This document shows, piece by piece, positions 30,554-38,706 of a DNA stretch of 64,000 bases. The notes below the pieces were generated by a model, which saw only the letters and a program-made list of their open reading frames with translations, searched no databases and was not told the origin of the DNA. Source of the stretch: Streptomyces sp. Tue6028 (GTDB lineage: Bacteria > Actinomycetota > Actinomycetes > Streptomycetales > Streptomycetaceae); contig NZ_MLCE01000015.1 of NCBI RefSeq assembly GCF_002300165.1, positions 186,001 through 250,000 of the forward strand, written 5' to 3'. Each line of letters opens with the position of its first letter. Position 1 is the first letter of the stretch. Position numbers and translations under genes: made by a program.

Positions 30554-30588
30554 CTAGGGGGTGCCCCCTGGCGGGCGACGCCCCCTAG
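30554..30588. terminator. Weak hairpin between convergent genes
   Basis: CTAGGGGG and CCCCCTAG pair across about 19 bases, with an additional inner AGGGGG / CCCCCT. It overlaps the stop codon of the Lon-like protease gene. Confidence 0.45.
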
Positions 30589-31373
30589 CAGCTGGGGACC
30601 CCGCCCTTGCCCGCGTCCAGGGCCACCAGGGCGTCCACCGCGCCCGCCAGGCTGGTCACCGGGATCAGGCGGAGTCCGTCCGGGAGTTCCGCCTTCGCCT
30701 CCGTGCACTCCGCCTTCGGCACCAGGAAGACCGTCGCGCCGTCCCGCCGGGCCGCCTGGGTCTTCAGCGACACACCCCCGACCGCGCCGACCTTCCCGTC
30801 GGCGTCGATCGTCCCCGTACCGGCGATGTTCCGGCCGCCCGTGAGGTCGCCGCCGCTGCCGTCGCCGTCCAGCTTGTCGACGATGCCGAGCGAGAAGAGC
30901 AGTCCGGCGCTGGGCCCGCCGACGTCGGCGAGCTTCAGCGTCACCTTCACGTCGTCCTTCTCGTGGAGGTACGACAGCGCCGCCTCGGTGGCCGTGTCCT
31001 GGGACTTCTTCATCTCGTCCGCGTTGTGCCGCTCGATCTCCTCCACGCTGTTCCCGCTCGGGTAGACCGAGTCGCGCGGCATCACGGCGCGGTCCGTGGC
31101 GAACCATCCGCCGAGCACGTCGCCGAGCGAGACGCTCGCGTCGGGCCCCGTCGCCTCGATCGTGGTCATCCGCAGCTGACCGCTGGTGTCACGGACGGGC
31201 GCGCCGCTGATCGTGATCACGGGGACGCCCTTTTTCTCGCCGAGGACGTTCGCCGTCAGGCCGGGCTGCGCCACGGAGAACGGCAGCGGAGCGAACACCG
31301 CCGTGGCGAGCAGTGCCACGACGGGAACGGCGCAGACGGCGACGGCCTTGGGACGTGTGAGGCGTGAGAGCAC
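30585..31373 (-). CDS. Membrane-anchored Lon-like (S16) serine protease, YlbL type without PDZ
   Basis: The protein has 262 residues: an N-terminal anchor or signal helix (about 10-34), then a Lon-type catalytic domain with Ser in DVGGPSAGLLFSLG (Ser155) and Lys in GAVGGVSLKTQAA (Lys204), the S16 Ser-Lys dyad. Most YlbL-family proteases carry a PDZ domain between anchor and protease and are about 340-360 residues. Here that region is too short and shows no PDZ pattern. The protein faces outward; substrates are unknown. Confidence 0.82.
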   Translation of the reverse strand: MLSRLTRPKAVAVCAVPVVALLATAVFAPLPFSVAQPGLTANVLGEKKGVPVITISGAPVRDTSGQLRMTTIEATGPDASVSLGDVLGGWFATDRAVMPRDSVYPSGNSVEEIERHNADEMKKSQDTATEAALSYLHEKDDVKVTLKLADVGGPSAGLLFSLGIVDKLDGDGSGGDLTGGRNIAGTGTIDADGKVGAVGGVSLKTQAARRDGATVFLVPKAECTEAKAELPDGLRLIPVTSLAGAVDALVALDAGKGGVPSC

Positions 31374-31388
31374 GGGATCAATCTAACG

Positions 31389-32510
31389 TCACCGCCCGGC
31401 GTACCCCCCGTACAGGTCCCGCCGCGCGGTCGTGAAGCGGCGCAGCGCCTCAGGGAGCGGTTCGGTCCCGATCCCCGGGGTGCGCGGCACCGGCAGATGC
31501 CCGTCCTGCAGGACGAAGGGCTCGGTGATGTCCTCGGCGAAGTAGCGGCTCGACGCGGACGTGTCGCCGGGGAGGGTGAAGCCGGGCAGGGCGGCGAGCG
31601 CCAGGTTGGGGGCGCGGCCGATGCCCGTCTCCAGCATGCCGCCGCACCAGGCGGGGACGCCGTGCGCGTGCGCGACGTCGTGGATGCGGCGGGCCTCCAG
31701 ATAGCCGCCGACGCGGGCGGGCTTGACGTTGACGACCCGGCACGCGTCCATGGCGATCGCGGACGCGGTGTCGCGGGCGCCGTGCAGCGACTCGTCCAGG
31801 CAGACGGGGGTGGCGATTCGGCTCTGGAGCACCGCGTGCTGGCGGAGGTTGTTCTCCTCCAGGGGCTCCTCGATCAGCAGCAGCCCGTACGTGTCGAGGC
31901 CGCGCAGATGCTCGGCGTCGGCGAGGGTGTACGCCGTGTTGGCGTCCACCTGGAGGGGCAGCTCGTCCCCGAAGCGTTCGCGCACGGCGCGCACGGGGTG
32001 CAGGTCCCAGCCGGGTTCGATCTTCAGCTTGATGCGGACGTACCCCTCGGAGAGGTAGCGCTCGACGTCGTCGAGGAGGGCCGGGACGGAGTCCTTGATG
32101 CCGACCGAGACGCCCGCGGGCACCCGGTCGCGCACCGCGCCGAGGTAGGTGGCGAGCGACATGCCGTGCGCACGCAGTTCGGCGTCGAGCACGGCGGTCT
32201 CCAGCGCCGCCTTGGCCAGCTCGTGTCCCTTGACCTTCGCCAGGGCGGGCGCGACGGCGGCGGCCGTGAGGTCCGGGAGGGCCGCCACGCGCGGCAGCAG
32301 GAAGTCCCGCAGCACGATCTCCGCGCCCGCCACGAACTCCGAGCAGTACAGCGGCTCGGGGTCGGCGGCGAACTCCGACCAGCCCTCGGCCATGTCCGTG
32401 ACGACGTGCAGCAGGAAGGTGTCCTTCGTCGTCATGGTGCCGAAGGACGTCCGGAAGGGGGTGACCAGCGGGAGGGCGATGTGGACGACCTCGACGCGTT
32501 CGAGCTTCAT
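31389..32510 (-). CDS. N-acylamino-acid racemase / OSBS-like enolase-superfamily enzyme
   Basis: This 373-residue muconate-lactonising-subgroup enolase-superfamily enzyme has all catalytic and metal residues: Lys161-x-Lys163 (RIKLKIEPG), Asp189 (QVDANTAY), Glu214 (LIEEPLEE), Asp239 (CLDES) and Lys263 (VNVKPARVGG). The numbering matches Amycolatopsis N-acylamino-acid racemase, also known to catalyse o-succinylbenzoate synthesis. Streptomyces make menaquinone by the futalosine route, so a MenC role is unlikely. The neighbouring GNAT gene (ATGA overlap) and a nearby M20 deacylase suggest an N-acyl racemisation pathway. Confidence 0.9.
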   Translation of the reverse strand: MKLERVEVVHIALPLVTPFRTSFGTMTTKDTFLLHVVTDMAEGWSEFAADPEPLYCSEFVAGAEIVLRDFLLPRVAALPDLTAAAVAPALAKVKGHELAKAALETAVLDAELRAHGMSLATYLGAVRDRVPAGVSVGIKDSVPALLDDVERYLSEGYVRIKLKIEPGWDLHPVRAVRERFGDELPLQVDANTAYTLADAEHLRGLDTYGLLLIEEPLEENNLRQHAVLQSRIATPVCLDESLHGARDTASAIAMDACRVVNVKPARVGGYLEARRIHDVAHAHGVPAWCGGMLETGIGRAPNLALAALPGFTLPGDTSASSRYFAEDITEPFVLQDGHLPVPRTPGIGTEPLPEALRRFTTARRDLYGGYAGR

Positions 32511-33415
32511 GCGGTGCCCTCCTCGAGGCTGCGGGTGAGGGTGTACCAGCCGTCGCGGGACATCCCCGTCGCGGTGAACCCCTCGGCGAAGGCCTCCGTG
32601 AAGACCTCCCGGACTGCGTGCCGCCAGCGCAGTGCCCGGACCGGGTCCGCGGCCCGCAGCGCGACGGTGTCGTGCGGCACACGGCACCACACGTGGCGAT
32701 CGCCCGGGTCCCGACGGGCGAGCGGACCGCCGTCGGGGGCGCGACGCGTGGCGGGCGCGGCCTCGCGGTCCGCGGCGTCCGGCGCCGGGCGCGACGGGGA
32801 GGGACGGACCAGGTCCCAGGTCACCGTGAGCCGGTCGCTCTCGTCCCCGTCGTTGACCCCGTCCGCCATGGGTCCGTAGAAGTCGACGAGGTACTCCGTG
32901 GCGGACGCGCCCAGCTTGACCAGGTTGAAGCGGGCGTTGCGGCCGACCAGCGGGTCGAAGGTCCAGCGCATCGACCGGGCGCCGCGCTCCAGGGCCCAGA
33001 TGCGCTGGGCCTGCTTCACGGCGTACCCGACGCCCCGGTCGGAGGCACGGGCCGCGGCCACGAAGGAGTACACGTCCGCTCCGGCGGGCGGGCCGAAGAC
33101 GGCGACCGAGGCGCCGGCCGGCCGGCCGCCGTCGAAGGCGGCGTGCACCGCGCCGCCCGCGTGGACGAGGCTGTGCAGCACCTCGGCCGGGTACGGCGGA
33201 GTGCTGCGCGGGGTCTGCCAGACGTCGCTGAAGAAGTCGGTCACGGCGGCGATGCCGGCGACGTCGTGCACCGTGCGGACCTCGACACCGGCGGCGCGGG
33301 CCGCGGCCCGCGCGACCTCCCGCGCCTCCGCCTGTGCCGCGCTCTCCGCCACCCCGGGAACCCCTGCCGTGGCACCCGCCGCCCTGAGGGCGACTGCCGT
33401 GGAATCTCCTGTCAT
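32507..33415 (-). CDS. GNAT-family acyltransferase, COG3375-like
   Basis: This 302-residue acyltransferase has a GNAT core with the diagnostic series TFDPLVGRNARFNLVKLG, then YLVDFYGPMADGVNDGDESDR. The same unusual GNAT group sits beside N-succinylamino-acid racemase in Geobacillus, where it N-succinylates D-amino acids. The stop overlaps the racemase start (ATGA), so they are translationally coupled. The middle (about 215-245) is an Ala/Pro/Arg-rich insert. The ATG at 33415 is the start before the family N-terminus; an ATG 15 codons upstream is possible. It is divergent from the PucR gene. Confidence 0.78.
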   Translation of the reverse strand: MTGDSTAVALRAAGATAGVPGVAESAAQAEAREVARAAARAAGVEVRTVHDVAGIAAVTDFFSDVWQTPRSTPPYPAEVLHSLVHAGGAVHAAFDGGRPAGASVAVFGPPAGADVYSFVAAARASDRGVGYAVKQAQRIWALERGARSMRWTFDPLVGRNARFNLVKLGASATEYLVDFYGPMADGVNDGDESDRLTVTWDLVRPSPSRPAPDAADREAAPATRRAPDGGPLARRDPGDRHVWCRVPHDTVALRAADPVRALRWRHAVREVFTEAFAEGFTATGMSRDGWYTLTRSLEEGTA

Positions 33416-33520
33416 GGGTCGAGTCTCCGAGCTCACCGCCGCCCTCGCGTTGTGCATCAGGACAACGAGCGCGTACGTTCCTGATGAGATCGGCCAAGCC
33501 ACTGCCTGGAAGGGGGTCCC

Positions 33521-35122
33521 GTGGACGCCTGCACCCTCGGCGACCTGCTGGACGTCGTGGGCGGCCCGGTCCGGCTGCACACCGCGCCCCACGGGCTCAC
33601 CGTGCCCGTGACGGAGGCCCTGCTCCACGACGCCCACACGCCACTGCCGAACGCGCCGGGGGCGCTGCTGCTCGCCGTCGGCGTCCGCGCGTCCGCGGCG
33701 GCACCGCTCGCGCGGGCGGCGGCACAGGCCGGGATGAGCGGGCTCGTCGTACGTGGCCCGGACGGACCGCTCGCGGAGGCCGAGGCGGCGGGCGTGGCCC
33801 TGCTGTCCGTCGACGAGGACGCCGCCTGGCACCACGTGCACCTGCTGCTCGCATCGGCGATCGGGGCCGTCCCCTCGGGCCTCGGGAGCGGCGCGGCCCT
33901 CGGCGACCTGTTCGCGCTCGCCGACGCCGTCGCGGCGGCCGTCGGCGGCGCCACCGCCGTCGAGGACCCGCGCCAGCGGATCCTCGCGTACTCGACCGTG
34001 CCGGGCCAGTCGGTCGACGAGGACCGCAGGCAGGGCATCCTCGGTCTCCAGGTGCCGACGAGCCCGGAGAACTCCGAGCAGTACCGGGTGCTGTTCGCGG
34101 CCGGCGGGCCGGTACGGCTGCCCGCGCTCGGCACCGGCACCGGCACCGACCTGCTGCCCCGACTCGCCGTCGCGGTGCGCGCCGGCGGCGAGACCCTCGG
34201 CTCGCTCTGGGTGGTCGACGACGGGAATCTCGCGCCGGACGCCGAGGCCGCCCTCGCGCAGGGCGCGTCCACCGCGGCGATGCTGCTGCTGCGGGCCCGG
34301 GCCGCACAGGAGCTGGCCCGCCACCAGAACGGCGACCTGCTGCGCCGCCTCCTCGACGGCACCGCCGACCCGGCCGCCGCGGCCCACCGGCTCGGCCTGG
34401 GCATCGGCCCGGACGGCGGCCCGGCACCCGTCCGGGTGGCCGCCTTCGTGCTCGGACCGGCCGTCTCGGCGGCCGACGTCGAACAGACCGCGCTGCGCCT
34501 CCTGGACCTCGTACGCCTCCAGTGCGAGGCGCGCTACGGGCGGCACGCCTGCGTCCTCGCCGACGGGGTCGTGTACGCGCTGCTGCCCGCGGTCGGCGAG
34601 CGCGGCGGGGCGCGGCACAGACAACTCGTGGAGGACGTCGTGCGGCGGGCCGGGCAGGCGCTGCGGGTGCCCGTGCGGGCGGGGCTCGGCGAGGTCGTGC
34701 CGGGCCTCGCCGAGGTGACGGCCTCCCGCGACGACGCGGACCTGGTGCTGCGCATCCTCGGACCGGAGCTGCCCGTGGCGTCCGTCGAGGAGGTAAGGCC
34801 CCGGGTCACCCTGCTCCGGCTCACCGAAGTGCTGGGCGAGAGCCGGGAGCTGAGCGCCGGGGCATGGCGCACGGTCCTCGCGTACGACGCCGAGCACGGC
34901 ACCGACTACGCCCGCACCCTCGTCTGCTGGCTGGACGCGGGCTGCGACATGGCGGGCGCGGCGCGCCTGCTCGCCGTGCACCCCAACACCTGCCGCTACC
35001 GCCTGCGACAGGCCCGGCAGCAGCTCGGCATCGACCTCGACGATCCCGACGAACGGCTGGTGCTGTGGCTCCAGTTGAGGGCACTCGCGGGGCTCAGGGG
35101 GACGCCGACAGCCAGCTCCTGA
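33521..35122 (+). CDS. PucR-family transcriptional regulator
   Basis: The 533-residue protein has an N-terminal PucR ligand domain (about 1-130), a central GGDEF-related region (about 290-410) and a C-terminal PucR helix-turn-helix (VHPNTCRYRLRQARQQLGID, near 485-510). PucR regulators control purine and amino-acid catabolic genes in response to a small ligand. It is 105 bases from the divergent GNAT-racemase operon and overlaps the convergent deacylase gene by 29 bases, so it is placed to govern both arms. The GTG start at 33521 follows AAGGGGG. Confidence 0.88.
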   Translation: MDACTLGDLLDVVGGPVRLHTAPHGLTVPVTEALLHDAHTPLPNAPGALLLAVGVRASAAAPLARAAAQAGMSGLVVRGPDGPLAEAEAAGVALLSVDEDAAWHHVHLLLASAIGAVPSGLGSGAALGDLFALADAVAAAVGGATAVEDPRQRILAYSTVPGQSVDEDRRQGILGLQVPTSPENSEQYRVLFAAGGPVRLPALGTGTGTDLLPRLAVAVRAGGETLGSLWVVDDGNLAPDAEAALAQGASTAAMLLLRARAAQELARHQNGDLLRRLLDGTADPAAAAHRLGLGIGPDGGPAPVRVAAFVLGPAVSAADVEQTALRLLDLVRLQCEARYGRHACVLADGVVYALLPAVGERGGARHRQLVEDVVRRAGQALRVPVRAGLGEVVPGLAEVTASRDDADLVLRILGPELPVASVEEVRPRVTLLRLTEVLGESRELSAGAWRTVLAYDAEHGTDYARTLVCWLDAGCDMAGAARLLAVHPNTCRYRLRQARQQLGIDLDDPDERLVLWLQLRALAGLRGTPTASS

Positions 35123-36164
35123 GCCGCTCCTCGCACGCGTGCAGCTGCGCGACCGGCACGTACTCCCCCGCCGTGTGCGCCAGCACCGGGTCGCCGGGGC
35201 CGTAGTTGAGCGCGGGGACGCCGAGCGCGGCGAACCGGGCGACGTCGGTCCAGCCCAGCTTCGGGCGCGGTGCCACGCCGAGGACGGCGACCAGCGAGGC
35301 CACCGCCTCCTGGCCGAGTCCGGGCAGCGCGCCGGGGACGACCTCGGTGACCTCGACGTCGTGACCGGGGAACAGGTCCCGTACGTACGCCTCGGCCTCC
35401 TGAGCCGAACGGCTGGGCGCGAACCGGGAGTTGACGGTGATCACACACTCGTCGGGGACGACGTTCCCGGCGACCCCGGCGCGTACGGCGACGGCGTTCA
35501 GGCCCTCCCGGTACTCCAGCCCGTCGATCACGACCCGCTGCGGCGTGTGGTCGGCGAGCCGCTGGAGGACGGCGGCGGCCCGATGGGCGGCGTTCACGCC
35601 CATCCAGGACCGCGCGGTGTGCGCCCGCTCGCCGCGCACCGTGATGTCGGCGCTCAGCACGCCCTGACAGCCGGCCTCGACCCCGGCGTCGGACGGCTCC
35701 ATGAGGATCGCGAGGTCCGCGGCGAGCAACTCCGGGCGCGCGGCGGCGATCACCCCGAGTCCGTTGCGGTCGCCCTCCACCTCCTCACACTCGTAGAAGA
35801 CGTACGTGACGTCACGGGCGGCCGGCGCGGGGACGGTGGCCGCGAGGCGCAGGGCGACGGCGACACCGCCCTTCATGTCGCAGGCGCCCAGGCCGTGCAG
35901 GAGGCCGCCTTCGAGTCGGGAGGGGAGGTTGTCCGCGGCGGGCACGGTGTCCAAGTGGCCCGCGATCAGGACCCGTTCGGGGTGACCGAGGTCGGTGCGG
36001 GCGACCACCGAGTGGCCGATCCGCTCGACGGTGAGGTGCGGCAGCCCGGCGAGCGCCGCCTCGACGGCGTCGGCGAGCGGGGCCTCGTGGCCGCTCTCGG
36101 AGGGGATGTCGACGAGCGCGCGGGTGAGGGCGACGACGTCGGCGAAGAGATCGAGCCGGGTCAT
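35094..36164 (-). CDS. dapE: M20-family deacylase, DapE-like
   Basis: This 356-residue zinc amidohydrolase has metal and catalytic residues His70-x-Asp72 (GHLDTVP), Asp96 (GACDMKGG), Glu127-Glu128 (ECEEVEG), Glu156 (MEPSDAG) and the C-terminal His in LAHTAGEY. It is close to actinobacterial succinyl-diaminopimelate desuccinylase, which acts in lysine/peptidoglycan synthesis. Beside an N-acylamino-acid racemase it could instead deacylate N-succinyl-L-amino acids; the two roles cannot be separated from sequence. The gene follows the permease with an ATGA overlap. Confidence 0.88.
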   Translation of the reverse strand: MTRLDLFADVVALTRALVDIPSESGHEAPLADAVEAALAGLPHLTVERIGHSVVARTDLGHPERVLIAGHLDTVPAADNLPSRLEGGLLHGLGACDMKGGVAVALRLAATVPAPAARDVTYVFYECEEVEGDRNGLGVIAAARPELLAADLAILMEPSDAGVEAGCQGVLSADITVRGERAHTARSWMGVNAAHRAAAVLQRLADHTPQRVVIDGLEYREGLNAVAVRAGVAGNVVPDECVITVNSRFAPSRSAQEAEAYVRDLFPGHDVEVTEVVPGALPGLGQEAVASLVAVLGVAPRPKLGWTDVARFAALGVPALNYGPGDPVLAHTAGEYVPVAQLHACEERLRSWLSASP

Positions 36165-37621
36165 GCCGCTTCCTCACGTTCCGGAGCCTGGTCGAGCTTG
36201 GAGTGCCTGATCCCGTACAGCCGGTAGATCACCAGCCCGGCCGCCATCCACGCGCCGAACGCGACCCAGGTGTCGGTGCCCAGGCTGAACAGCATGTACG
36301 CGCAGAAGCCGACGCCCAGGATCGGCGTGACCGGCGAGAAGGGCACCCGGAACGACCGTGGCGCCTCGGGGCTGCGCCGCCGCAGCAGCACCACCGCCAG
36401 GTTCACCAGCATGAAGGCGAACAGCGTGCCGATGCTGGTGGCGTCGGCGAGGGCGCCCAGCGGGACGAGCGCGGCGAGCACGGCGATGAACAGCGACACG
36501 ATGACGGTGTTGGCCCGCGGCACCCCGGTCCTCGGGTGCACCTTGGAGAACAGCGGCGGCACCAGGCCGTCCCGCGACATCGCGAACAGGATGCGGATCT
36601 GCCCGTACTGCACGGTCAGCACGACGCTGGTGGTCGCGACGACCGCGCCCACCGACAGCAGCACCGGCCACAGGTTCCCGCCGCCCACCGACTGCACGAG
36701 CACCTGGCTGAGCGTGGCCTCCGTGCCCTCGAACCGCTGCCACGGCATCGCCCCGAGCGCGGCGACCGCGACGAGCACGTACAGCGCGGTGACCAGGACG
36801 AGGGAGAGGATGATCGCGCGCGGCAGGTCGCGCTGTGGGTTCCGCGCCTCCTCGCCCGCCGTGGAGGCGGCGTCGAAGCCGATGTAGGAGAAGAACAGCG
36901 ACGCGGCGCCCGCGCTCATCCCGGCCGTGCCGAGCGGGAACAGCGGGGTGAAGTTCCCGGCGTGGAAGGCCGTGAAGGCCACCGCGCAGAACATGACCAG
37001 CGCGGCGATCTTCACACCGACCATCACGGTGTTCGCGACGGCGCTCTCCCGGGCCCCGCGCAGCAGCACGACCATGGACAGGACGACGATCGCGGCAGCC
37101 GGGACGTTCAGGACGCCGCCGTCGCCCGGTGGCGCGCTGAGCCACTCGGGCAGGGTGACCCCGACGGTCAGGTCCAGCAGTTCGTTGACGTACTGGCCCC
37201 AGCCCACGGCCACGGCGGCCACCGACACCCCGTACTCCAGGATCAGGCACCAGCCGCAGACCCAGGCGACGAGTTCGCCGAGGGTGGCGTAGGCGTAGCT
37301 GTAGGAGGAGCCGGAGCCGGGGATCATGCCGGCCAGCTCGGCGTACGACAGCGCCGAGAACAGCGCGGTCACCCCGGCCAGCACGAACGACACGACGATG
37401 GCGGGGCCCGCCTCGGGGACGGCCTCCCCCAGCACCACGAAGATGCCCGTGCCGAGGGTCGCTCCCACGCTGAGCAGCGTGAGCTGCCCGACCCCCATGG
37501 TCCGCTTCAGCGGGCTCCCGGCGGCGTCGGCGACCAGCGCCCCGACGTCCTGCCGCCGCGTCAGCCGGCCGACCCGCCCGCTCCCCGGACCGCCCTTCGG
37601 CCGTGTACGCACTGTCTCCAC
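36161..37621 (-). CDS. Amino-acid permease, cationic amino-acid transporter type
   Basis: This 486-residue transporter of 12-14 helices from the APC superfamily CAT group has KRTMGVGQLTLLSVGATLGTGIFV and later FFSYIGFDAASTAGEEARNP, the CAT hallmark. The family carries Arg, Lys or ornithine, but neutral-amino-acid members exist. Its stop overlaps the deacylase start, so the two are one operon. The GTG at 37621 is the chosen start. The cytosolic N-terminus is rich in Arg and Gly. Confidence 0.87.
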   Translation of the reverse strand: METVRTRPKGGPGSGRVGRLTRRQDVGALVADAAGSPLKRTMGVGQLTLLSVGATLGTGIFVVLGEAVPEAGPAIVVSFVLAGVTALFSALSYAELAGMIPGSGSSYSYAYATLGELVAWVCGWCLILEYGVSVAAVAVGWGQYVNELLDLTVGVTLPEWLSAPPGDGGVLNVPAAAIVVLSMVVLLRGARESAVANTVMVGVKIAALVMFCAVAFTAFHAGNFTPLFPLGTAGMSAGAASLFFSYIGFDAASTAGEEARNPQRDLPRAIILSLVLVTALYVLVAVAALGAMPWQRFEGTEATLSQVLVQSVGGGNLWPVLLSVGAVVATTSVVLTVQYGQIRILFAMSRDGLVPPLFSKVHPRTGVPRANTVIVSLFIAVLAALVPLGALADATSIGTLFAFMLVNLAVVLLRRRSPEAPRSFRVPFSPVTPILGVGFCAYMLFSLGTDTWVAFGAWMAAGLVIYRLYGIRHSKLDQAPEREEAA

Positions 37622-37885
37622 CGTGCTGCTCCCTCCACCGCACCGTCCGCTTCAGTGCCCTGATGATGCGGACGCCACAGCTCCGGCCGGTGGGAGCATC
37701 GGCCAGAGATACGCGAAAGGGTTTGTCGTCCCGGCCAAAGCGGAGGGAGGGCGGCGGGCCTGCGCGGCCGGGGGCCGGGGACTCCGGTTTCCGTGCGGGG
37801 CGCGGGGTGCGCGGCGGGGTACGGACGCGACGAGGGCCGCGCGCGGCGCGGGGACGCACGCACCCGGCGTCGCCCGGGAGCCTCC

Positions 37886-38038
37886 GGGCTCGGCGCGGGA
37901 ACGGGGTCGCCCGGGAGCATCCGGACTCGGCGCGGCGACGTACGCGCTCGGGCTCGGCGCGGGAACGGGGTCGCCCGGGAGCGTCCAGGCTCGGCGCGGC
38001 GACGTACGCACCCTGCGTCGTCCGGGCTCGGCGCGGCG
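37886..38038. repeat. 60-bp direct repeat, two copies plus a partial third
   Basis: Copies at 37886-37945 and 37950-38009 start GGGCTCGGCGCGGGAACGGG and end GACGTACGC. They differ at only a few positions and have a 64-base period. A third copy of about 15 bases starts near 38023. It fills the gap between the permease and the IclR gene, and there is no gene inside. A more degenerate version continues upstream to about 37780. Confidence 0.85.
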
Positions 38039-38064
38039 CTGAGCCCGCCCCGTGGCGCCCGGGT

Positions 38065-38706
38065 TCAGCGGAGTGCGTCGGCGACCTCGCGCGCGGCGTC
38101 GACCACCCGGGGCCCGACCCTCTCGGGCACGGAGTCGGCGAGCATGACGACGCCCACGCTCCCCTCGACCCCGGTCACACCGAGGAGCGGTGCCGCGGCA
38201 CCGCTGGCCCCGGCCTCCAGCTCGCCGTGCGTGAGGGTGTACCCGGGCTCCTCCGCCGACGCCTGCCGGGCGGAGAGGATCGCCCGCCCCGCGGCCCCCC
38301 GGTCGAGCGGATGCCGGAACCCGGCGCGGTAGGCGACGTGGTAGTCCGTCCACGTCGGTTCGACGACGGCGACGGCCAGCGCCTCCGTCCCGTCGACGAG
38401 CGTGAGATGAGCGGTCGCCCCTATGTCCTCCGCCAGCGCGCGCAGCGCCGGCAGCGCGGCCTCCCGCACCAGCGGGTGCACCTGACGGCCCAGCCGCAGC
38501 ACCCCGAGTCCGACCCGGGCGCGACCGCCCAGGTCGCGGCGGACGAGAGCGTGCTGCTCCAACGTGGCCAGCAAGCGGTACACAACGGTCCGGTTGACGC
38601 CCAGTTTGTTCGAGAGCTCGGTGACGGTCAGCCCGTGATCCGTGTCGGCGAGCAGCTTGAGGACGCGCAGTCCCCTGTCGAGCGTCTGAGAGGTCTCCGC
38701 GGTCAC
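38065..38706 (-). CDS. IclR-family transcriptional regulator
   Basis: The 213-residue regulator has an N-terminal winged HTH (TQTLDRGL-like start, then GVNRTVVYRLLATLEQH) and a C-terminal effector domain with YRAGFRHPLDRGAAGRAILSA. IclR proteins control catabolic or transport genes. It lies upstream of the permease-deacylase operon on the same strand, with a repeat-filled gap between. The GTG at 38706 is chosen because AAGGAG sits 8 bases upstream; the GTG at 38715 would touch the ribosome site. Confidence 0.88.
   Translation of the reverse strand: MTAETSQTLDRGLRVLKLLADTDHGLTVTELSNKLGVNRTVVYRLLATLEQHALVRRDLGGRARVGLGVLRLGRQVHPLVREAALPALRALAEDIGATAHLTLVDGTEALAVAVVEPTWTDYHVAYRAGFRHPLDRGAAGRAILSARQASAEEPGYTLTHGELEAGASGAAAPLLGVTGVEGSVGVVMLADSVPERVGPRVVDAAREVADALR

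What the first reader, a model, noticed from the sequence alone, without database searches (positions are those of the whole stretch)
31389..38706. Candidate D- to L-amino-acid conversion locus: racemase, GNAT, M20 deacylase, permease, two regulators
The N-acylamino-acid racemase (all catalytic residues present), a COG3375-like GNAT with ATGA overlap, a DapE-like M20 deacylase, a cationic amino-acid permease (ATGA overlap with the deacylase), a PucR regulator and an IclR regulator sit together. In Geobacillus, racemase plus succinyltransferase plus desuccinylase convert D-amino acids to L through N-succinyl intermediates. Streptomyces use the futalosine route for menaquinone, so the racemase does not need to be MenC. 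The permease and divergent PucR would add uptake and ligand control. I have not seen this as a described Streptomyces system. The DapE-like enzyme may instead only make lysine.
Basis: partly seen in the sequence, partly recalled or inferred. Interest (0 to 1): 0.8.

Follow-up and report, generated by a model that had tools for sequence, protein, structure and literature searches.

The report
Streptomyces D- to L-amino-acid conversion cassette
Five neighbouring genes in a Streptomyces genome look like a transferable cassette that tags mirror-image (D) amino acids, flips them and releases the usable L form, with its own switch and an importer; the chemistry is known from another bacterium, but this assembly, with a remodelled lysine-pathway enzyme, looks like a new variant.

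Summary
The core is a GNAT acyltransferase and an enolase-superfamily N-acylamino-acid racemase sharing an ATGA overlap; the racemase is 64% identical to the crystallised Amycolatopsis enzyme with all catalytic residues kept. A divergent PucR regulator shares a conserved dyad with GNAT (33449-33466); a DapE-like M20 hydrolase and an APC permease follow. The genome has a futalosine gene pair, no menD over cut-off and a second, better-scoring dapE. Window-type M20 occurs in 15 of 150 Streptomyces genomes, all with racemase-GNAT; it keeps DapE's zinc ligands and alpha-carboxylate contacts but differs at positions aligned with those holding DAP's second carboxylate. The full set is in 15 of 26 close loci, at several chromosomal sites; 7 keep only racemase-GNAT. 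In 80 actinobacterial loci the GNAT lies near a racemase in 75, PucR in 50 and an M20 of three subfamilies in 35. A 97%-identical relative of the characterised Amycolatopsis racemase lies in such a cluster. Best reading: PucR-controlled D-to-L amino-acid salvage by the published N-succinyl route. Acyl group, stereospecificity and direction are not shown. New variant of a known kind.

The parts
31389..32510 (-). N-acylamino-acid (N-succinylamino-acid) racemase, enolase superfamily, TIGR01928 type
   Evidence: 289.8 bits, cut-off 200.65; 63.6% identical to 1sja over 363 residues, catalytic and metal residues kept
32507..33415 (-). GNAT N-acyltransferase with extra C-terminal region; proposed D-amino-acid N-succinyl (or N-acetyl) transferase
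   Evidence: AlphaFold2 model and fold match; 4-nt overlap with the racemase in 24 of 26 close loci (22 by script; 2 by reading)
33449..33466 (.). Dyad GTTGTGCATCAGGACAAC, proposed PucR operator between GNAT and PucR
   Evidence: TTGT-N8-ACAA exact in 10 and with one mismatch in 7 of 19 close loci; 12 exact and 4 one-mismatch of 17 in a second, partly overlapping set; only exact copy in the 64 kb window
33521..35122 (+). PucR-type regulator (HTH_30, GGDEF_2)
   Evidence: PucR at E 1e-100 in 22 of 150 Streptomyces genomes, all 22 also hold the GNAT
35094..36164 (-). DapE-like M20 metallohydrolase, proposed N-acyl-L-amino-acid deacylase
   Evidence: separate clade from housekeeping DapE; alpha-carboxylate contacts kept, positions aligned with distal contacts changed
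36161..37621 (-). APC-family amino-acid permease
   Evidence: 72-74% identical permease directly before GNAT-racemase in two Lentzea loci

Best explanation
An inducible D-amino-acid salvage cassette. The APC permease (or other uptake) brings in D-amino acids. The GNAT N-acylates the D-amino acid, most likely with succinyl-CoA. The racemase interconverts the N-acyl-D and N-acyl-L forms by 1,1-proton transfer between K163 and K263 on a metal-bound enolate. The DapE-derived M20 enzyme hydrolyses only the N-acyl-L form, so net flow is D to L. PucR senses a ligand and controls GNAT-racemase and itself through the dyad in the shared promoter. Shown here: the genes, the GNAT fold, catalytic residues, linkage, co-occurrence, a conserved dyad and changed residues in the M20 pocket. 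Inferred: acyl donor, stereospecificity of GNAT and M20, direction, PucR binding and ligand, and permease substrate.
For: Racemase: 63.6% identity to the Amycolatopsis enzyme; all 115 aligned racemases (1sja included) keep K163, D189, E214, D239, K263, R266. GNAT-racemase coupling: adjacent in 26 of 26 close loci and 19 of 20 second-group Streptomyces loci, the other ending at a contig end. Co-occurrence: window-type M20 in 15 of 150 genomes, all 15 with GNAT-racemase; PucR 22 of 22 with GNAT. The five genes are kept together at several unrelated chromosomal sites. The second group has a different M20 (carboxypeptidase-G2-like) directly before GNAT in 19 of 20 loci. M20: zinc ligands and three alpha-carboxylate contacts kept in 25 of 25, positions aligned with distal contacts changed. 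Dyad. Other clusters add dipeptide ABC, M19 dipeptidase and beta-lactamase-fold genes. Published: a GNAT that makes N-acetyl- and N-succinyl-D-aromatic amino acids, and the title of the D-to-L pathway paper (Sakai 2006, as cited in PMC8762209, passages seen).
Against: 7 of 26 close loci have racemase-GNAT without this M20, permease or PucR, and 4 have PucR but no M20 or permease. In 80 loci of named genomes, 45 show no M20 by three M20 queries and 30 show no PucR; a deacylase elsewhere would have to serve. In 3 loci (L164, L185, L196) no racemase of either type was found near the GNAT. M20: the Thr183 position of H. influenzae DapE is Thr in 13 of 25 window-type enzymes (Ser in the window itself), so losing the actinobacterial Arg there is weaker evidence than the change at the Ser181 position; the Ser290 position is not conserved in DapEs. 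The AHK to AHT change beside a zinc histidine, first taken as a specificity mark, is not diagnostic: many other actinobacterial DapEs have AHT. No dyad before the permease except one weak match in the window. The GNAT's homology to the Geobacillus enzyme was not tested. Stereospecificity cannot be read from sequence.
Confidence: 0.7

Rival explanations
1. The racemase is the cell's MenC (o-succinylbenzoate synthase) and the M20 is simply DapE for lysine, neighbours by chance.
For: NCBIfam names them so: TIGR01928 and TIGR01900 over their cut-offs.
Against: No menD over cut-off, two futalosine-type genes; the second dapE scores higher, and a gene like it is the only close match in 132 of the 150 genomes; changed distal positions; co-occurrence with GNAT-racemase.
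Confidence: 0.05
2. Same parts, opposite direction: an L-specific GNAT and a D-specific M20 make D-amino acids, for example for release or a natural product.
For: Stereospecificity is not visible in sequence; the racemase is reversible (general knowledge of the family; kinetics both ways for the Amycolatopsis enzyme in PMC8142540).
Against: Related clusters carry dipeptide and amino-acid importers and dipeptidases, a scavenging context; DapE, the nearest family of the M20, acts on an N-succinyl-L,L substrate (PMC4791643, passages); the published GNAT acts on D-amino acids.
Confidence: 0.08
3. Salvage of environmental N-acyl-D-amino acids, or detoxification of amino-acid-like antibiotics by the GNAT, with the racemase and M20 clearing N-acyl products; free D-amino acids are not the main substrate.
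For: GNAT fold neighbours include phosphinothricin acetyltransferases, though GNAT folds match widely; racemase-amidohydrolase tandems accept many N-acyl groups (PMC7431475, passages).
Against: A coupled acyltransferase is not needed to salvage N-acyl compounds; GNAT-racemase is the most conserved part.
Confidence: 0.13

Closest known systems
Geobacillus kaustophilus N-succinylamino-acid racemase / D-succinyltransferase / L-desuccinylase pathway (Sakai et al. 2006)
   Same: Enolase-superfamily racemase, GNAT and a hydrolase proposed to give net D to L conversion
   Different: Here the deacylase is a DapE-type M20 in a separate transcription unit, with a PucR regulator, a dyad and an APC permease; homology of the GNATs was not tested. 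Known to me from passages of citing reviews and recall; the paper itself was not read.
Amycolatopsis N-acylamino-acid racemase / NSAR-OSBS (PDB 1sja, 4a6g)
   Same: 63.6% identical, catalytic residues identical; a 97.2%-identical relative in A. orientalis (L202) also lies beside GNAT, an M20 and a PucR
   Different: There the adjacent M20 is the carboxypeptidase-G2-like type, not the DapE type, and the PucR is only 34% identical
Actinobacterial DapE (TIGR01900; C. glutamicum 3tx8)
   Same: Family, zinc ligands, alpha-carboxylate contacts
   Different: Distinct clade; positions aligned to H. influenzae S181 and T183 (T/S and R in actinobacterial DapE) mostly replaced

Membership tests
N-succinylamino-acid racemase (TIGR01928 / NSAR-OSBS group) | Two catalytic lysines and three metal ligands | tested here: met
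   K163, K263, D189, E214, D239; their roles are partly recalled, the lysine pair also in PMC8142540
N-succinylamino-acid racemase (TIGR01928 / NSAR-OSBS group) | Arg266 second-shell residue (recalled as a mark of NSAR activity) | tested here: met
   R266 in the window and in all 115 rows; its meaning is recalled, not from a call
N-succinylamino-acid racemase (TIGR01928 / NSAR-OSBS group) | Racemase activity on N-succinyl- or N-acetyl-amino acids | not testable with these tools
   needs assay
Sakai D-to-L pathway | Racemase, GNAT and hydrolase encoded together | tested here: met
   for the window; full set in 15 of 26 close loci
Sakai D-to-L pathway | GNAT homologous to the Geobacillus enzyme and D-specific | not tested
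   no Geobacillus sequence fetched; activity not testable
Sakai D-to-L pathway | Hydrolase specific for N-succinyl-L-amino acids | not testable with these tools
   pocket changes are compatible
DapE (TIGR01900) | Score over curated cut-off and zinc ligands | tested here: met
   479.9 vs 304.2 bits; H70, D96, E128, E156, H330
DapE (TIGR01900) | Residues contacting the second DAP carboxylate | tested here: inconclusive
   S181 position T/S in 48 of 48 DapEs but V/I/F/Y in 23 of 25 window-type (not met); T183 position R in 47 of 48 but 0 of 25, yet Thr, the H. influenzae residue, in 13 of 25; S290 position variable. Contact list from docking in H. influenzae DapE (PMC5919655, one passage)
MenC of a menaquinone pathway | Other men genes present | tested here: not met
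   menD best 65 bits, cut-off 244; other men genes not searched
GNAT superfamily | GNAT fold | tested here: met
   no Pfam model hit
PucR-type regulators | PucR C-terminal helix-turn-helix | tested here: met
   HTH_30 70.3 bits, GGDEF_2 26.3 bits; no N-terminal PucR domain match listed

The most novel reading that the evidence does not exclude
The GNAT here is the constant part of a general actinobacterial D-amino-acid (or D-residue peptide) salvage system that has been assembled repeatedly from interchangeable pieces: three M20 subfamilies, two enolase-superfamily racemase subfamilies and APC, dipeptide-ABC or polar-amino-acid-ABC importers, often under a PucR regulator. In Streptomyces an old DapE paralog was turned into the L-deacylase by remodelling the pocket for DAP's second carboxylate.
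Probability: 0.45. Interest if true: 0.68.

Novelty: new variant of a known kind. Interest (0 to 1): 0.55.

Why it matters
D-amino acids from peptidoglycan and non-ribosomal peptides are common in soil (general knowledge), and my searches of open-licence papers found no description of such a route in Streptomyces. The locus gives named enzymes, a candidate operator and a residue-level prediction for how a lysine-pathway enzyme changed its substrate, all testable with standard assays. If right, genes that NCBIfam models would name 'o-succinylbenzoate synthase' and 'succinyl-diaminopimelate desuccinylase' are misnamed at such loci.

Tried and rejected
IclR as a part: rejected. PucR control of the permease-M20 unit by the same dyad: no support, one weak match upstream of the permease in the window and none in the 13 other loci scanned. 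AHK to AHT as a specificity mark: rejected on the larger set. Recent duplication of Streptomyces dapE: not supported, the window-type M20 is one clade (support 100/96) outside the Streptomyces housekeeping clade; the root is midpoint and rests on one long branch, so its depth is unsure. Decay of the cassette in two species: rejected; on reading the DNA one GNAT is intact and starts further downstream, and one racemase only holds undetermined bases. ARAGORN tRNA-Trp inside the racemase (32167-32255): treated as false, Rfam does not report it. No sigma-70-type promoter match in the region. VIA and Foldseek lists name no characterised D-amino-acid transferase; this excludes nothing. Literature searches without a description of this assembly: (open-licence PMC only; mostly listings seen, six papers opened by passage).
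Full report
Observation. Both ATGA overlaps are present. PucR is divergent from GNAT and convergent with the M20, overlapping it by 29 nt.

Racemase. It aligns without gaps to the Amycolatopsis N-acylamino-acid racemase 1sja over 363 residues, 63.6% identical. K163, D189, E214, D239, K263 and R266 are identical, and all 115 racemases aligned (1sja included) keep them. The own genome has five PF13378 matches; I read the other four as sugar-acid dehydratases and enolase from the sequences printed, without a family search. Menaquinone: two VitK2_biosynth genes, menD best 65 bits against a cut-off of 244. Other men genes were not searched.

GNAT. No Pfam, NCBIfam or PDB sequence match. The AlphaFold2 model from a 26-row alignment matches GNAT structures over residues 40-205; the C-terminal third is barely tested.

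M20. The genome holds a second TIGR01900 gene, 528.2 bits against 479.6. In 150 Streptomyces genomes, 147 have a match to the window M20 at E 1e-70. Exactly 15 (the window's included) have two, and in those the better one is the window type at 74% identity or more; all 15 hold GNAT-racemase. Taken as independent draws this would be 2e-14, but the genomes are related and most share one site, so that is not a true probability. A tree of 74 proteins puts 25 window-type enzymes in one clade, support 100/96. Mapped on H. influenzae DapE by the alignment (distant, so positions carry some doubt), the zinc ligands and three alpha-carboxylate contacts (R258, T325, N245) are invariant in 25 of 25 window-type and 48 of 48 DapE sequences. 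Distal contacts: the S181 position is T or S in 48 of 48 DapEs but V, I, F or Y in 23 of 25 window-type. The T183 position is R in 47 of 48 DapEs and in 0 of 25 window-type; but Thr, the H. influenzae residue, is the commonest there (13 of 25; Ser in the window), so this change is weaker evidence. The S290 position is A (29) or S (19) in DapEs and V in 19 of 25 here. One long-branched row (C_L271) was dropped before these counts. The contact list comes from docking (PMC5919655, one passage read). I read this as remodelling of the pocket for DAP's second carboxylate; that is inference. An earlier idea, the AHK to AHT change, failed on the larger set.

Linkage in Streptomyces. GNAT matches are in 43 of 150 genomes. 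Of the 50 matches listed, I fetched the surroundings of 47 besides the window and left out 2 fragments. Among 26 close loci (GNAT 62% or more, 25 genomes, window included), the racemase is adjacent in 26; PucR, M20 and permease are all present in 15; PucR without M20 or permease in 4 (L053, L061, L062, L072); none of the three in 7. The 4-nt GNAT-racemase overlap holds in 24 of 26: 22 by script and two that the script missed, by reading. Most cassettes sit between the IclR gene and a PDZ-like secreted-protein gene (my reading of 30585-31373). Of 30 loci fetched around the IclR gene, 23 show IclR and that gene side by side without the cassette, 6 show cassette genes and 1 neither. L054, L057, L064, L073 and L074 carry the five genes without those flanks. 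Flank comparison separates at least three neighbourhoods (IclR site; L054 with L154 and L155; L074 with L159 and partly L064), while L057, L073 and L138 match none of the others above 400 bases. A second group (GNAT 39-48%, 20 loci) has the racemase beside GNAT in 19 of 20 (the other ends at a contig end) and a carboxypeptidase-G2-like M20 directly before GNAT in 19 of 20.

Regulator. PucR at E 1e-100 is in 22 of 150 genomes, all 22 with GNAT; in G036, G048 and G149 (52% identical there) it accompanies the second-group GNAT. In 19 close loci the stretch upstream of PucR holds TTGT-N8-ACAA exactly in 10, with one mismatch in 7, and not in 2 (L073, L074). The bases just outside pair (G-C, C-G or A-T) in 9 of those 10 exact copies (L062 does not) and in 11 of 12 of the second set. 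In 826,827 bases of loci there are 12 exact copies: 10 in this gap, 1 upstream of the relocated PucR in L091, 1 elsewhere; the 7 loci without PucR have none. The stricter TTGTSC-N4-GSACAA has 3 sites in the 8 Mb genome: this one, one between a PucR-like regulator and a branched-chain-type ABC ATPase (my reading) and one inside an ORF.

Beyond Streptomyces. The GNAT is in 85 of 296 genomes of the class, 35 of 114 genera. Within about 9 kb: the window-type racemase subfamily in 68 of 80, another enolase-superfamily enzyme in 7, neither in 5 (two of them at contig ends); PucR in 50; an M20 by three queries in 35. Architectures: permease-GNAT-racemase in two Lentzea; dipeptide ABC, often M19 and beta-lactamase-fold genes, then M20-GNAT-racemase-PucR, complete or in part, in Amycolatopsis, Saccharothrix, other Lentzea, Kribbella and others; PucR-GNAT-racemase-polar amino-acid ABC in 6 of 10 Cryobacterium loci; and PucR-GNAT-ABC-other enolase enzyme-amidohydrolase-type M20 in Paeniglutamicibacter (L179) and Pseudarthrobacter (L180), with the same order but no M20 found in four Arthrobacter loci (L173, L182, L193, L194). 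The A. orientalis racemase in L202 is 97.2% identical to 1sja.

Literature. Passages only: a GNAT making N-acetyl- and N-succinyl-D-aromatic amino acids and the D-to-L pathway title (PMC8762209); racemase/succinylase tandems of Geobacillus kaustophilus (PMC7431475); mechanism and kinetics of such racemases (PMC8142540); DapE contacts and specificity (PMC5919655, PMC4012986, PMC4791643). Sakai 2006 itself was not read. Searches found no description of this assembly, in open-licence papers only.

Verdict. A PucR-controlled D-to-L amino-acid salvage cassette is the best reading (0.70). It is a new variant of a known pathway; the new parts are the remodelled DapE-type deacylase, the dyad and the repeated reassembly around one GNAT family.

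Noticed in passing
L180 (Pseudarthrobacter) and L179 (Paeniglutamicibacter): GNAT cluster with a different enolase-superfamily enzyme and an amidohydrolase-type M20 behind a polar amino-acid ABC importer: apparently a separate assembly of the same logic.
   Followed up: partly
L271 8641-9696 (genome G186): A second, long-branched DapE-like M20 in another actinobacterial genome, about 47-48% identical, with no GNAT or racemase found nearby; the S181- and T183-equivalent positions also look changed by eye.
   Followed up: partly
window 31389-32510 (racemase residue 323): Racemase position 323 is Tyr here and in 109 of 115 rows; F323Y is one of two changes in an engineered Amycolatopsis racemase (PMC7431475, passage).
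   Followed up: no
L276 (G000:C26:181272-181287): A perfect TTGTGC-GCGC-GCACAA dyad lies between a PucR-like regulator and a branched-chain-type ABC ATPase (by reading), hinting that related regulators share this site type.
   Followed up: no
window 32167-32255 (+): ARAGORN calls a tRNA-Trp inside the racemase gene; Rfam does not, so probably false.
   Followed up: yes
L164, L185, L196: GNAT relatives with no racemase of either type found within about 9 kb, so some members of this GNAT family may do something else.
   Followed up: no
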